From the NCBI RefSeq assembly GCF_032163395.1, contig NZ_CP119968.1:1101501-1165500 (forward strand): DNA of 64,000 bases, given 5' to 3'. Positions 3,108-42,585 of this stretch are shown in pieces. The notes below the pieces were generated by a model, which saw nothing but the letters and a program-made list of their open reading frames with translations, searched no databases and was not told where the DNA came from. Each line of letters opens with the position of its first letter. Within the stretch, counting starts at the first letter, position 1. The stretch is from Gloeocapsopsis dulcis (GTDB lineage: Bacteria > Cyanobacteriota > Cyanobacteriia > Cyanobacteriales > Chroococcidiopsidaceae). Made by a program: the position numbers and the translations under genes.

Positions 3108-4808
3108 ATGAACAGTCAAGGTAATAAACACTTTTCTTTGTACTCGCTAGCCAAACTTACGTTGGCAGTTTTAATGACAACTCCATTTGCAGTACCACAA
3201 ATAGCAACAGCTGCTGCACTCAACATTAAAAGAACGAACTACGGTATTCCTAATGGAGCGTTTTTTGTATCACCAACAGGTCAACCTGGGAATTCTGGTA
3301 GGTCAGCCAACTCGCCGTGGCCTGTGAGTAAAGCGATCGCATCCGCACCAAGTGGAGCAACAATTGTTTTTCGTGGTGGGACATACCGTAACGTCCGCCT
3401 GAATGTGAACAAGCGCTTGACCTTACAAGCCTATCCCAACGAGCAACCCTGGCTCAAAGGTAGCACTATTGTTACGGGTTGGGCAAAAGAAGGTCGGATG
3501 TGGCGCAAAGACGGTTGGAAATACTCGTTTCCCCCAAATCAACAACCACGAGCAATTGATCCCAAGTTTCCTATCGCAGGCTATCGGGACATGGTTTACA
3601 TCAATGGTGTCGCCCTCAAGCAAGTTGGTAACAAAGCAAGAGTTGGTCCTGGCACATTCTATGTTGATGCTCGTAACAACAAGCTTTACGTCGGTAGTAA
3701 CCCCAATGGTAAAACTGTAGAAGCTACAGTACTGACAGAAGGCATTGTCGTATGGAATAACTCTGCCTCAGGTTCAGTGGTGCGTGGGCTAGGTTTGGCA
3801 CATTATGCTGACCAAGCACTGAAGATTGGTGCTTCAGGTGTCACTGCGGAGAACAACACCCTCGCTTGGAATGGTCTAGAGGGCGTCACAGTTCAATCTG
3901 CTAACGTCAAATTACGTGGCAACAGTATTAGCTACAACGGTCGCAAAGGTGTGAATGGTATTCGCGCTCACCGCTTGTTGATTGAAAACAACACGATTAG
4001 TCATAACAATGTCGAGCGCTTTTCTGATTCCTGGAGTGCTGCGGGTGTCAAAATGCTCTGGACTGACGGAACCATCATGCGGGGCAACACTGTCAATAAC
4101 AATCAGTCGATTGGTCTTTGGATTGACGAATCTACGACTAACTCAACCGTTGTCAATAATGTCGTTCTCAACAATAGTAGTAACGGCATCTCGATGGAAA
4201 TTTCTCACAAAGCCATCATTGCCTCTAATGTTGTTTCTGGCAATGCACCAGCAGGAATCATCATCCTTAACTCTTCAAGTGCACGCATCTACAACAACAC
4301 CCTCGCCCGCAACAATGCTAATATTCTAGTTCAGGACACTTCACGTAATAATACAAAATCCAATGAAATTTCTAAGGGAATCACTTGGATGACACGAAAT
4401 ACGATTGTGAAAAACAACATCCTCTGGAACTCGAGTGGTCCAATGTTTCATGCCCCTGGCTGTGCAGCGAAACAGCCATCACGTTTGATGATTCCCACAA
4501 CGAACAATAACGCTCACTATCGCACTTCTGCTAATCGCTCTGCTAGTTTCATTTGGGGAGTCAATAGCAAGCAGTGCTCTCAAACATTCAATTCCTTGGC
4601 AAGCTTCCGGTCAGCCACAGGTTTAGAAGCGAACAGTCTTGATGTGGTCAACTCCAATGATCCATTCTTTGTCAATGCTGGCGCGAACGACTTTCGACTC
4701 AAAGCAGGTAGTCCAGCTATTGGGCGCGGAGAGCCGCTTCCTGCTGATATTGCTAATGCTATCGGTGTCCCTGCTGGCAGAAAGGTCAATCTCGGTGCGT
4801 TGCGATAA
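3108..4808 (+). CDS. Exported right-handed parallel beta-helix protein, paralog 2
   Basis: 566 residues from ATG 3108. An in-frame ATG at 3033 exists, but 3108 is preferred: the N terminus (MNSQGNKH) then matches paralogs 3 and 4, and a purine-rich AGAGAG lies just upstream. The signal peptide has a hydrophobic core followed by ATAAA. The architecture matches paralog 1: an N-terminal PSGATIVFRGG block, Asn-rich beta-helix coils over the middle, a conserved NGISMEISHK segment, two late cysteines and a C-terminal SPAIGRG...NLGAL closure. DNA identity with paralog 3 is extreme: 3711-3946 equals 6494-6729 base for base. This indicates recent duplication or gene conversion. Predicted to be secreted or surface-attached; biochemical function unknown. 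Confidence 0.88.
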   Translation: MNSQGNKHFSLYSLAKLTLAVLMTTPFAVPQIATAAALNIKRTNYGIPNGAFFVSPTGQPGNSGRSANSPWPVSKAIASAPSGATIVFRGGTYRNVRLNVNKRLTLQAYPNEQPWLKGSTIVTGWAKEGRMWRKDGWKYSFPPNQQPRAIDPKFPIAGYRDMVYINGVALKQVGNKARVGPGTFYVDARNNKLYVGSNPNGKTVEATVLTEGIVVWNNSASGSVVRGLGLAHYADQALKIGASGVTAENNTLAWNGLEGVTVQSANVKLRGNSISYNGRKGVNGIRAHRLLIENNTISHNNVERFSDSWSAAGVKMLWTDGTIMRGNTVNNNQSIGLWIDESTTNSTVVNNVVLNNSSNGISMEISHKAIIASNVVSGNAPAGIIILNSSSARIYNNTLARNNANILVQDTSRNNTKSNEISKGITWMTRNTIVKNNILWNSSGPMFHAPGCAAKQPSRLMIPTTNNNAHYRTSANRSASFIWGVNSKQCSQTFNSLASFRSATGLEANSLDVVNSNDPFFVNAGANDFRLKAGSPAIGRGEPLPADIANAIGVPAGRKVNLGALR

Positions 4809-5902
4809 AAAGTATTAAACGAAACTTGATGTCATTTATATTGCATCAATTGAGAAGCTGAAACTCAAGAACTTAATGCTGCTATAATTTGCAGGCGATC
4901 GCACTGAAGAAAATCCGGCAGCTTTGTTTTTACTTATGAAAAGCGATCGCCTTTCTTTCCATTGTCAATTTTATGCATTTGCAGTTATTTAATTGAGGGC
5001 AGCTATCAATCCAGTTTAATGATGCCAAAGCAAATGTCATGAAGAAGGAGTAGGCGTTTTATCTACTTAACTTCGTATGACTTCCTTCTCCTTCTGATTT
5101 ATTCAGAATATCAATTCTTAATAGTAGATCTACTCAAATCAACTCAAGTATGACTTTTATATACATTAAACTTTTCAGTAAGATTCCACTTGAATTTCTA
5201 CTTCAAAAAGTGTATGCTTTTTTTCTGTATTATTTAGATTTGTAAAAACAAGGATTTTGCAATGGAGGCGGGAAGCGTAGCTTTTTGATGTAGAAGCTTT
5301 AATTTACACATTCACCTACAATTTATAGTTTTTTGCTGCTGGCTTAAAACTGAAGAAGAGATTGCACTGATAGACTATAAGTCGTCTTGATCTCTAAGAA
5401 GTTCCTTTATCTAGGTAACAGATTATCAGCGAGTATCTTTACTGTATTCTAGCTTGCCGTTTTGCAGCTATCAACTACAGAGAATAAATATTCCTCTACC
5501 CAAATTAAACGCAAGTTGCGAATCTAGAATCGTTTTCTGAAGAACTTGCTCTCCTATCTCACAACTTAGAGTTCGCAGTTTTTACTGCATGAATAATGTT
5601 GTTGGGAAAGTTTTTAATGACTTCAAATATTACGATGATACATTTGTGCAGCAATAGCTGTGGAAATTCTGCTGGAGGAGCTTTATGCTACTTCTTTTAC
5701 CATTTGGCAAAAGCACAATCATTTGAATCGTGCTTTAGTTCTTTCCCCTACACCCCGTCTTCTTACAGTCTGTTTGTATCAGCTTTAAAGCAAAACGGTA
5801 TTTATCGACAACCAGCATTAGGAAACTTAGAGCAAGTGGACTGACTTAAAGCGAAGAATACTCACATAACACTTCCATCGCACGACACTATGGAGAGCAA
5901 CG
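4809..5902 (+). promoter_or_regulatory. Non-coding interval with duplicated leader of beta-helix paralog 3
   Basis: About 1.1 kb between paralogs 2 and 3. Two HIP1 octamers in opposite halves of an AGGCGATCGC / GCGATCGCCT pair (about 4893-4945) could fold after the paralog 2 stop. From about 5170 to 5902 it matches the paralog 2 upstream region in scattered blocks, and the last 80 bases match the paralog 4 leader closely. The open frame at 5596-5844 lies in this leader, is not conserved among the paralogs and is not called. Confidence 0.5.
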
Positions 5903-26679: not shown

Positions 26680-26802
26680 CGTTCATTAAATGCTCAAGAT
26701 AAGCTGTTAACTAGCTTTAAGCTTGTTTCAATGATAAGAAGGAAATTTTGCACAGGATATAAATATAGATTACCGAAAAATTGGGTTTAAAGTCCCGTCT
26801 TT

Positions 26803-26943
26803 CTAGGACGGCTTTTTCTTTAGTCTTAGATTTCTAATGAGTTCTCTAAGCACGTCACTTTTTGTCCTACCAACAGATGAGCAATACTCTTCTAGAATCT
26901 CAAGCTCATACTCTTCAACTCTAAAATCTAATCGTTTTTTCAT
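26803..26943 (-). CDS. Small ribbon-helix-helix (CopG/Arc-like) protein inside the TnpB element
   Basis: 46 residues: MKKRLDFRVEEYELEILEEY then CSSVGRTKSDVLRELIRNLRLKKKPS. The pattern is a short polar beta strand (KRLDFRV), an amphipathic helix, a G-R-T-K-S turn and a second helix (SDVLRELIRNL). This is the classic RHH DNA-binding fold of small repressors and antitoxins. The stop codon lies in the left-end hairpin, so the gene belongs to the element. It is divergent from tnpB with 34 bases between start codons. That gap holds a near-perfect inverted repeat, and the gene has no Shine-Dalgarno, so translation is probably leaderless. Proposed role: repressor of tnpB and of itself (inference). 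Confidence 0.75.
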   Translation of the reverse strand: MKKRLDFRVEEYELEILEEYCSSVGRTKSDVLRELIRNLRLKKKPS

Positions 26944-26975
26944 AGTATTGTACGGATGTATGGTGTACAATACTA
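26943..26975. promoter_or_regulatory. Shared operator/promoter between the RHH gene and tnpB
   Basis: An 11-bp perfect inverted repeat: TAGTATTGTAC at 26943-26953 and GTACAATACTA at 26965-26975, centre spacing 11. Each arm contains TACAAT on the strand of the gene it faces, a -10-like box 3-7 bases before that gene's ATG. A dimeric RHH protein bound here would cover both promoters. Symmetry is seen; function is inferred. Confidence 0.65.
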
Positions 26976-26977
26976 CC

Positions 26978-28102
26978 ATGAAAACCTTGAAGTTTAAACT
27001 CTACAGTCATAAGCGAAATCGATACCTCAAGCAATCAATCAATGCTGCTGGGGTTATCTACAATCACTGTATTGCACTCTACAACCGCTACTACCGAATG
27101 TGGGGTAAGCATTTGAACTGTGCTAAACTTCAGGCTCATATTGCTAAACTACGCAAACGTAACCTATTTTGGCAACTAGTTGGATCTCAAGCGGTGCAAG
27201 ATATTTGTCAGCGCATTGAGAATGCCTATCAACTATTTTTCAAACATCACAAAAAAGGGGTTCGACCACCAGGGTTCAAGAAAGTTAAAAAGTATAAATC
27301 GTTCACCTTAAAACAGGCTGAATATAAGTTTTTGAGTGGCAATCGAGTCCGCATTGGGAACCAGATTTATCAGTTTTGGAAGTCTAGAGAAATTGAGGGA
27401 ACCGTCAAAACACTAACCATTAAACGTACCCCACTGGGCGAGCTATTTGTGGTTGTTGTAGTTGACAAATGTTCTGATTTAGAAGTCAAGTTCACGACTG
27501 GTAAGATAGCGGGATTTGACTTTGGGTTAAAGACATTTCTTGTTTGCTCAGACGGTACAAAAATTGAATCTCCCCAATTCTTGAAACAATCTCTAAACGC
27601 TATCCAGAAAGCTAGTAGACAACACTCCAAAAAGCTAAAAGGTTCATCTAACCGAGAACAGGCAAGGAAAAATCTGGTACGCAGGCATGAAGATATTTTT
27701 AACGCTAGGCGGGATTGGTTTTGGAAGCTAGCTCATGAACTCACAAACAAGTTTGACGTACTGTATTTTGAGACATTAAATCTCAAGGGAATGCAACGCC
27801 TTTGGGGACGCAAAGTCTCAGACTTAGCATTGGGGGAATTTCTGCAAATCCTAGAATGGGTTGCTAAGAAGAAAGGCAAGCAAGTAGTCTACATTGACCG
27901 TTGGTATCCATCCAGCAAAACTTGCAATACTTGCGGTCATATCCTAAAAGACCTTGATTTAGAAATTCGACAATGGCGTTGTCCGTCTTGTCAGTCAGTG
28001 AACGGGAGAGACGAAAACGCTGCTAAAAATATTCAAGCAGTTGGGGCATCAACTGTTGGGTTAGGCAATGTAAGACGGTTAAGAGCTGCAATTGCTGTTT
28101 GA
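26978..28102 (+). CDS. tnpB: RNA-guided endonuclease TnpB, IS200/IS605 family
   Basis: 374 residues from ATG 26978. The frame extends upstream, but that part is antisense to the RHH gene and is rejected. The RuvC-like catalytic residues appear intact: Asp in GFDFGLKTF, Glu in LYFETLNLKGM and Asp in NGRDENAAKNI. The zinc-binding CNTCG...CPSC pair lies between the last two. An N-terminal helix-turn-helix/OB-like portion begins MKTLKFKLYSHKRNRYLKQS. TnpB cuts DNA guided by an RNA from the element's right end. With all motifs present it is likely active. Confidence 0.93.
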   Translation: MKTLKFKLYSHKRNRYLKQSINAAGVIYNHCIALYNRYYRMWGKHLNCAKLQAHIAKLRKRNLFWQLVGSQAVQDICQRIENAYQLFFKHHKKGVRPPGFKKVKKYKSFTLKQAEYKFLSGNRVRIGNQIYQFWKSREIEGTVKTLTIKRTPLGELFVVVVVDKCSDLEVKFTTGKIAGFDFGLKTFLVCSDGTKIESPQFLKQSLNAIQKASRQHSKKLKGSSNREQARKNLVRRHEDIFNARRDWFWKLAHELTNKFDVLYFETLNLKGMQRLWGRKVSDLALGEFLQILEWVAKKKGKQVVYIDRWYPSSKTCNTCGHILKDLDLEIRQWRCPSCQSVNGRDENAAKNIQAVGASTVGLGNVRRLRAAIAV

Positions 28103-28172
28103 GCCTAGAATCCTCGCACTTATAGGGCGAGGAGTATGTCAAAGCCAGTTACTCTTTTAATCCTGAAAAATT

Positions 28173-42446: not shown

Positions 42447-42535
42447 CTTGTCTGTTATTTTGACTCCTTGCCAAGCCGCGCGCAAGCAGTCGGGTAAAGG
42501 AGTGAGTTTTAGCTATATCTCCCTCCCTCCCCTCA

Positions 42536-42569
42536 GAACCGTGCGGACAACTTTCACTGTACACGGCTC
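42536..42569 (-). ncRNA. Group II intron domain V
   Basis: Minus-strand hairpin opening GAGCCGTGTACAGTGAAAG and closing CGCACGGTTC: the conserved 34-nt catalytic domain with its GAAA-type loop region. The domain VI stem follows. Confidence 0.9.
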
Positions 42570-42585
42570 AAGCAATTTCTACAGC

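What the first reader, a model, noticed from the sequence alone, without database searches (positions are those of the whole stretch)
26795..28133. TnpB element carrying its own divergent RHH repressor gene and a symmetric operator
Seen: a 46-codon ribbon-helix-helix ORF lies inside the element between the left-end hairpin and tnpB, on the opposite strand. The 34 bases between the two ATGs contain an 11-bp perfect inverted repeat whose arms each include a TACAAT -10-like box placed for leaderless transcription of the gene it faces. Inference: the RHH dimer represses both promoters, giving an autoregulatory switch on an RNA-guided nuclease. I know of no described TnpB elements with this module. 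The frame also explains a misleading N-terminal extension of the tnpB ORF.
Basis: partly seen in the sequence, partly recalled or inferred. Interest (0 to 1): 0.78.

Follow-up and report, generated by a model that had tools for sequence, protein, structure and literature searches.

The report
Repressor cassette inside TnpB mobile elements
A small mobile element in a cyanobacterium that encodes an RNA-guided DNA-cutting enzyme also carries, in the place where relatives keep their transposase gene, a tiny repressor gene and a matching DNA docking site; the same arrangement recurs in many other such elements and probably acts as an off-switch for the enzyme.

Summary
A 46-codon CopG-like ribbon-helix-helix (RHH) gene (26803-26943, minus) lies inside a 1369-bp tnpB-only element (26774-28142, 3' of TTAC); three relatives have the same empty site. 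A perfect 11-bp inverted repeat (26943-26953/26965-26975) fills the gap to tnpB and covers its -10-like box.

Comparison goes beyond the finding. Of 100 distinct close tnpB elements, 49 carry an intact divergent RHH, 8 a broken one, 17 a divergent Y1 tnpA (some fragmentary) in the same slot, 26 neither. RHH genes are under purifying selection (median dN/dS 0.09-0.16). Four RHH subtypes each go with their own operator motif. Subtype T2 keeps its operator beside two tnpB lineages about 30% identical: arms 84%, fourfold sites 17% identical. Divergent pairs occur in about nine tnpB lineages.

Best reading: an exchangeable repressor-operator cassette in the tnpA slot that keeps tnpB, and probably itself, low. 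Repression is inferred. Two details fail: the leaderless promoter on the RHH side, and general conservation of the repeat's left arm. Nine library searches showed no description.

The parts
26774..28142 (+). whole mobile element, 1369 bp, CGAAAA...TCAA
   Evidence: Flanks abut at window 26773/28143 in G005, G386 and G388; junction read in L236; copies in other genomes end at the same places
26770..26773 (+). TTAC, likely target-adjacent motif left of the element
   Evidence: Kept in the empty site and present at the left edge of copies; its role as TAM is inferred
26795..26811 (+). left-end hairpin CCGTC/GACGG; its loop holds the RHH stop codon; terminator-like on the + strand
   Evidence: Terminator-like scan hit (1 found, 1.0 expected); folding no better than shuffles, z -0.55
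26803..26943 (-). RHH (CopG-like) gene, 46 codons plus stop
   Evidence: purifying selection in relatives
26943..26975 (.). operator: perfect 11-bp inverted repeat, arms 26943-26953 and 26965-26975
   Evidence: exact pattern found once in the genome
26966..26971 (+). TACAAT, -10-like box of tnpB, 6 nt before the ATG, inside the right operator arm
   Evidence: Sequence; spacing shared by 36 of 49 intact-RHH loci
26978..28102 (+). tnpB, 374 aa, RuvC motifs GFDFG, FETLNL, RDENAA present
28111..28142 (+). right-end hairpin and terminal TCAA; by analogy the 3' part of the guide-RNA scaffold, guide starting at 28143
   Evidence: Inverted arms, fold z -3.69, recurring right ends in relatives; guide-RNA role recalled from other TnpB elements

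Best explanation
A tnpB-only (IS1341-type) element of the IS200/IS605 kind carries a self-contained repressor-operator cassette in the slot where relatives carry tnpA. The 46-aa CopG-like RHH protein is expected to dimerise and bind the operator between the two genes. Here the operator covers the -10-like box of tnpB and reaches the RHH start codon, so binding should block tnpB and probably the RHH gene as well. The element thus holds its RNA-guided nuclease at a low, self-adjusting level, and tnpB should be derepressed for a time when the element enters a cell without the cognate repressor. Shown: anatomy, mobility of the whole unit, purifying selection on RHH, co-occurrence and matched change of RHH subtype and operator. 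Inferred: binding, repression, behaviour on entry.
For: RHH lies inside the unit that moves. 49 of 100 distinct close elements have an intact divergent RHH; in 80 named loci all 47 RHH matches at E<1e-5 lie just upstream of tnpB, none elsewhere in 543 kb. Median dN/dS 0.087-0.155 in four subtypes. Own-motif scores 14.2/16, 16.6/18, 15.7/18, 15.1/17 against 9.1, 10.2, 9.5, 9.1 for shuffles. T2 operator arms 84% identical across tnpB lineages while fourfold sites are 17% (60 of 349). Residues 4, 6 and 8, which face the DNA in CopG (recalled), differ between subtypes and largely hold within them. The window's operator is unique in its genome.
Against: No experiment. The motifs were chosen from these loci, so one search is partly circular. 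In T1 the left arm is no better kept than fourfold sites, and L090, L121 and L146 lack it. 26 of 100 elements have neither gene and 8 a broken RHH. The RHH promoter is not located. Joint loss of RHH and operator can be a single deletion.
Confidence: 0.75

Rival explanations
1. The inverted repeat works as a hairpin (in mRNA, or in single-stranded DNA during transposition) and not as an operator.
For: As a single strand the gap folds far better than shuffles, z -5.87.
Against: Subtypes T3 and T4 have direct repeats in the same place, which give no such hairpin. In T1 the pairing arm is often lost.
Confidence: 0.07
2. The RHH protein mainly regulates host genes or another element; its place beside tnpB is a hitch-hiking position.
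For: Related RHH genes without tnpB beside them exist (L003, L004, L152, L157, L166-L171).
Against: The exact operator occurs once in the genome; the 25 further places with 3 mismatches are near the 20 of the reversed control, one of them lying in the genome's other RHH-tnpB pair. Divergent RHH-tnpB geometry recurs in about nine tnpB lineages.
Confidence: 0.08
3. The RHH protein takes part in transposition (end binding or recruiting a TnpA from elsewhere) rather than in transcription control.
For: It occupies the tnpA slot and its 3' end overlaps the left-end hairpin. Elements lacking tnpA need one in trans; the own genome has five Y1 matches, the best of four aligned 38% identical to the family's TnpA.
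Against: The subtype-specific repeats lie at the promoter, not at the element ends; RHH proteins are DNA-binding regulators as a rule (recalled).
Confidence: 0.06

Closest known systems
IS200/IS605 family, IS1341-type (tnpB-only) elements
   Same: TnpB with RuvC motifs, TTAC on the left, hairpin ends, terminal TCAA, no tnpA inside
   Different: Carries a divergent RHH gene and operator in the tnpA slot; no such gene is mentioned in the passages I saw of the tnpB papers
CopG plasmid copy-number repressor (1b01, 1ea4, 2cpg)
   Same: Length 45-46 aa, ungapped alignment, closest fold in the PDB; autoregulating repressor at an inverted repeat over a promoter (recalled)
   Different: Sits in an insertion element and faces an RNA-guided nuclease gene; some subtypes use direct repeats
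TldR, nuclease-dead TnpB-like repressors
   Same: Regulation tied to TnpB-type genes (abstract start seen, PMC13418256)
   Different: There the TnpB-like protein is itself the RNA-guided repressor; here TnpB keeps its catalytic motifs and a separate protein is the presumed repressor
Insertion-sequence self-repressors such as InsA of IS1 (recalled)
   Same: A mobile element limits its own activity
   Different: Those act on a transposase gene; here the target is a nuclease gene and the cassette is exchanged between elements

Membership tests
IS200/IS605, IS1341-type | TnpB-family protein with RuvC catalytic motifs | tested here: met
   motifs present and no internal stop
IS200/IS605, IS1341-type | No tnpA in the element; subterminal hairpins; insertion 3' of a fixed short motif without target duplication | tested here: met
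   No tnpA hit for L006; empty sites show TTAC and no duplication; right hairpin z -3.69, left hairpin not significant, z -0.55
IS200/IS605, IS1341-type | RNA-guided cleavage by TnpB | not testable with these tools
   -
CopG / RHH_1 transcription regulators | Sequence match to the family profile | tested here: inconclusive
   Window protein 18.9 bits, cut-off 20.5; 20 of 34 aligned members match RHH_1 at E<=0.001
CopG / RHH_1 transcription regulators | RHH fold | tested here: met
   Monomer model pLDDT 86.4, pTM 0.53, closest to CopG; the strand that pairs in the dimer was not assigned in the monomer model
CopG / RHH_1 transcription regulators | Binds its own promoter region as dimers | not testable with these tools
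   Indirect only: operator-subtype match
Type II toxin-antitoxin system | Antitoxin with a toxin gene in the same operon | tested here: not met
   Besides tnpB, the ORF list of the element shows only short unassigned frames; the next candidate gene on the RHH strand lies outside the element. PADLOC gives no match for the RHH

The most novel reading that the evidence does not exclude
TnpB elements exchange their left module: Y1 transposase on one side, at least four RHH repressor-operator types on the other. Elements with the same RHH type would form immunity groups that silence each other's nuclease in trans, while entry into a cell that lacks that type would release a burst of RNA-guided cleavage (zygotic induction of a homing nuclease). 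The repressor type would then set when and where a TnpB element drives itself into empty sites.
Probability: 0.35. Interest if true: 0.82.

Novelty: new variant of a known kind. Interest (0 to 1): 0.64.

Why it matters
Many tnpB genes lie in elements without a transposase, and how such elements keep an RNA-guided nuclease harmless yet ready is open. A dedicated, exchangeable repressor with a defined operator makes this testable with a gel shift and one gene removal. It also offers several natural repressor-operator pairs of one small fold whose specificity can be compared residue by residue, and a marker by which tnpB elements can be sorted into regulatory groups.

Tried and rejected
Rejected: the RHH ORF as a chance antisense frame (dN/dS); the palindrome as a general hairpin (T3 and T4 use direct repeats); a leaderless promoter on the RHH side; a toxin-antitoxin pair; L129 as an element with both genes (its tnpA match lies on the same strand as tnpB, about 344-634 nt upstream, and looks like a neighbouring element).

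Led nowhere: phages hold no match to the RHH protein; plasmids hold one, with no annotated feature under it. Of 54 loci fetched from viral contigs, one has a clear RHH-tnpB pair (L281) and one a weak one (L274, E 0.00026). The PDB profile search with A1 hit only 15-residue stretches of two long chains. Rfam gave nothing at the element at gathering thresholds. Phyla other than cyanobacteria were not surveyed. The tnpB tree is weakly resolved: 38 of 96 inner branches open.

Literature: nine searches answered, listings only. Passages only were seen of PMC3119063, PMC8303175, PMC9956272, PMC11870625, PMC9679502, PMC6563490, PMC9208149 and PMC10711439. None of these passages describes an RHH gene in a tnpB element. 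Most subscription papers and all bioRxiv preprints proper are outside the library.

Full report
What is there. The element is 26774-28142 (1369 bp), inserted 3' of TTAC (26770-26773). A DNA search of 20 genomes (own and relatives; 18 with some match) found three relatives in which the left flank, ending at window 26773, and the right flank, starting at 28143, abut directly: G005, G386 and G388. The junction reads gattac|agcctg in L236. Inside, from left to right: a left-end hairpin (26795-26811) whose loop holds the RHH stop codon, the RHH gene on the minus strand (26803-26943), a 34-base gap, tnpB (26978-28102), and the right-end hairpin with terminal TCAA. In Nostocales cyanobacterium HT-58-2, three copies that are 99.6-99.9% identical share this whole unit and differ outside it. 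The RHH gene therefore moves with the element.

The RHH protein. It has 46 residues. Pfam RHH_1 is the best match, just under its cut-off; 20 of 34 aligned members match RHH_1 at E<=0.001, the window's own not among them. It aligns without gaps to CopG 1-40, E 0.28. The predicted monomer (mean pLDDT 86.4) is closest to CopG in the PDB (TM 0.74/0.78, rmsd 1.3), with Foldseek E-values of 0.05 and above for so short a chain.

How common it is. tnpB relatives came from 386 cyanobacterial genomes (33 with a match at E<=1e-80) and from named genome contigs (80 kept of 449). 112 loci over 70% identical with an N-terminus collapsed to 100 distinct ones: 49 intact divergent RHH, 8 broken RHH, 17 with tnpA, 26 neither. 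The RHH profile was built iteratively from the same kind of upstream ORFs. In all 17 the tnpA match is on the strand opposite to tnpB, in the place of the RHH; several are fragments, L094 and L134 clearly. No intact-RHH element holds a tnpA (L129's is co-directional and lies outside). In the 80 named loci all 47 RHH matches at E<1e-5 lie just upstream of tnpB and none in the rest of 543 kb.

From the RHH side, 80 of 386 genomes have a match at E<=0.001; these include genes without tnpB beside them. With 60 further stretches fetched, all loci then held gave 82 distinct divergent RHH-tnpB rows, broken ones included; L107 and L138 count twice because of split frames, so 80 loci. They form 13 single-linkage tnpB clusters; four are pieces of the window's family (L059, L175, L177, L178; compare), leaving about nine lineages. 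L163 is the loosest (gap 128, partial tnpB match). L146 carries an RHH 78% identical to the window's beside a tnpB 28% identical. In the host genome 39 tnpB matches were found, 30 of them fetched; among the fetched, three have a divergent RHH: the window's, L002/L027 and L015.

Selection. Median dN/dS within subtypes: T1 0.131 (11 genes, 23 pairs), T2 0.155 (15 genes, 19 pairs), T3 0.132 (19 genes, 27 pairs), T4 0.087 (9 genes, only 4 pairs). One T1 and three T3 genes of the set were left out for want of an anchor or length; T5 and other genes were not tested.

The operator follows the repressor. In one search each subtype was seen to have its own repeat between the genes: T1 ATTGTACA-N9-TGTACAAT, T2 TTGTATATC-N5-GATATACAA, T3 GCCGTCATATTGCCGTCA and T4 CTACCCAATGGCTACCC (the last two direct repeats with an 11-bp period). 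70 of 82 rows were scored (12 dropped, RHH E>1e-13). Own-motif means: T1 14.2 of 16 (12 rows), T2 16.6 of 18 (15), T3 15.7 of 18 (22), T4 15.1 of 17 (9); shuffles 9.1-10.2. Foreign motifs score near shuffles, except that T1 and T2 resemble each other in part (11.8 and 12.5), T5 (4 rows) resembles P2 in part (13.0) and the 8 remaining rows resemble P1 (12.1; they include L066, a T1 gene fused to its neighbour). The motifs were picked from these loci, so the stronger test is T2: 7 loci beside the window's tnpB family, 8 beside a lineage about 30% identical. Across the two groups RHH proteins are 66% identical, fourfold sites 17% (60 of 349), left flank 29%, spacer 66%, right flank 79% (it leads to tnpB and holds promoter sequence), operator arms 84%.

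Against the reading: in T1 (11 loci) only the arm next to tnpB is strongly kept (98%); the other arm is at 63%, like fourfold sites (64%), and L090, L121 and L146 lack it. The perfect palindrome is thus a trait of part of T1, and the kept arm may partly reflect the promoter. Operator thresholds are reached in 46 of 49 intact-RHH, 2 of 8 broken, 1 of 26 neither, 0 of 17 tnpA loci and 23 of 2460 random windows. The broken class depends on the threshold: L107 scores 14 of 18, one short, yet has a 14-bp palindrome. Loss of operator with RHH can be one deletion, so that contrast alone is weak.

Specificity. The T1 pattern occurs exactly once in the 5.6-Mb genome; 25 other places have 3 mismatches, against 20 for the reversed control. 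One of the 25 lies in the gap of the genome's other pair, L002. Residues 4, 6 and 8, which in CopG face the DNA (recalled), are R-D-R in T1 and S-F-R in T2 and largely K/R-T-R and R-S-R in T3 and T4 (read).

Promoters. The best TATAAT-like hexamer lies 6 nt before the tnpB ATG in 36 of 49 intact-RHH loci, 14 of 26 neither, 5 of 8 broken, and 5 of 17 tnpA loci. A leaderless tnpB start is thus likely in most RHH loci and not bound to the RHH. For the RHH gene no fixed spacing exists, and no full sigma-70 consensus was found in the gap.

Exchange of the left module. On a tnpB tree of 99 elements its state (four RHH types, tnpA, none) changes at least 42 times, against a mean of 60 and a minimum of 51 in 200 label shuffles; with RHH types merged, 27 against 37 (minimum 31). 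So it is partly inherited and often exchanged. Sister groups on starred branches with different modules include L065 (T1) with L080 (T3), and L130 (tnpA) with L123/L138 (T2). Support is SH-aLRT only and the tree is weakly resolved.

Mechanism. The simplest reading is an autoregulated repressor that keeps tnpB low; binding, repression and effects on homing are inferred. The 34 elements with a broken RHH or neither gene show that the module is dispensable, at least for a time. How tnpA-less copies move is open: the own genome has five Y1 matches, two of them with a stop, and the best of the four that align is 38% identical to the family's TnpA.

Comparison with what is known. As an element it is IS1341-type; as a protein it is CopG-like; the combination was not found in nine searches of open-licence PMC papers. 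I rate it a new variant of a known kind.

Noticed in passing
L037, L048, L062, L084, L099, L101, L119, L130, gap between tnpA and tnpB: tnpA-type relatives have their own inverted repeat GTAGAT..ATCTAC between the divergent genes in 8 of 17 loci (0 of 83 others), possibly a site for another regulator or TnpA itself.
   Followed up: partly
L174 (Nostoc sp. TCL26-01 plasmid), 3403-5668: Eleven tandem 156-bp hypothetical genes with a 211-bp period beside an RHH gene.
   Followed up: no
L166, RHH at 1492-1620: A related solo RHH gene lies between an ftsQ-like and an ftsZ-like gene (names recalled from the sequences).
   Followed up: no
L066 / L176: The RHH frame has lost its stop in the left-end hairpin and runs on into neighbouring sequence that itself looks like a DNA-binding protein.
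   Followed up: no
window 26795-26811: The left-end hairpin followed by CTTTTTCTTT is terminator-like for transcription entering the element from the left (one found, one expected by chance).
   Followed up: no
window 42489-42571: Group II intron domain on the minus strand (Rfam RF00029, 61.5 bits).
   Followed up: no
L281, L274 (viral contigs): Contigs catalogued as viral carry tnpB with a divergent RHH gene, clear in L281 and weak in L274.
   Followed up: no
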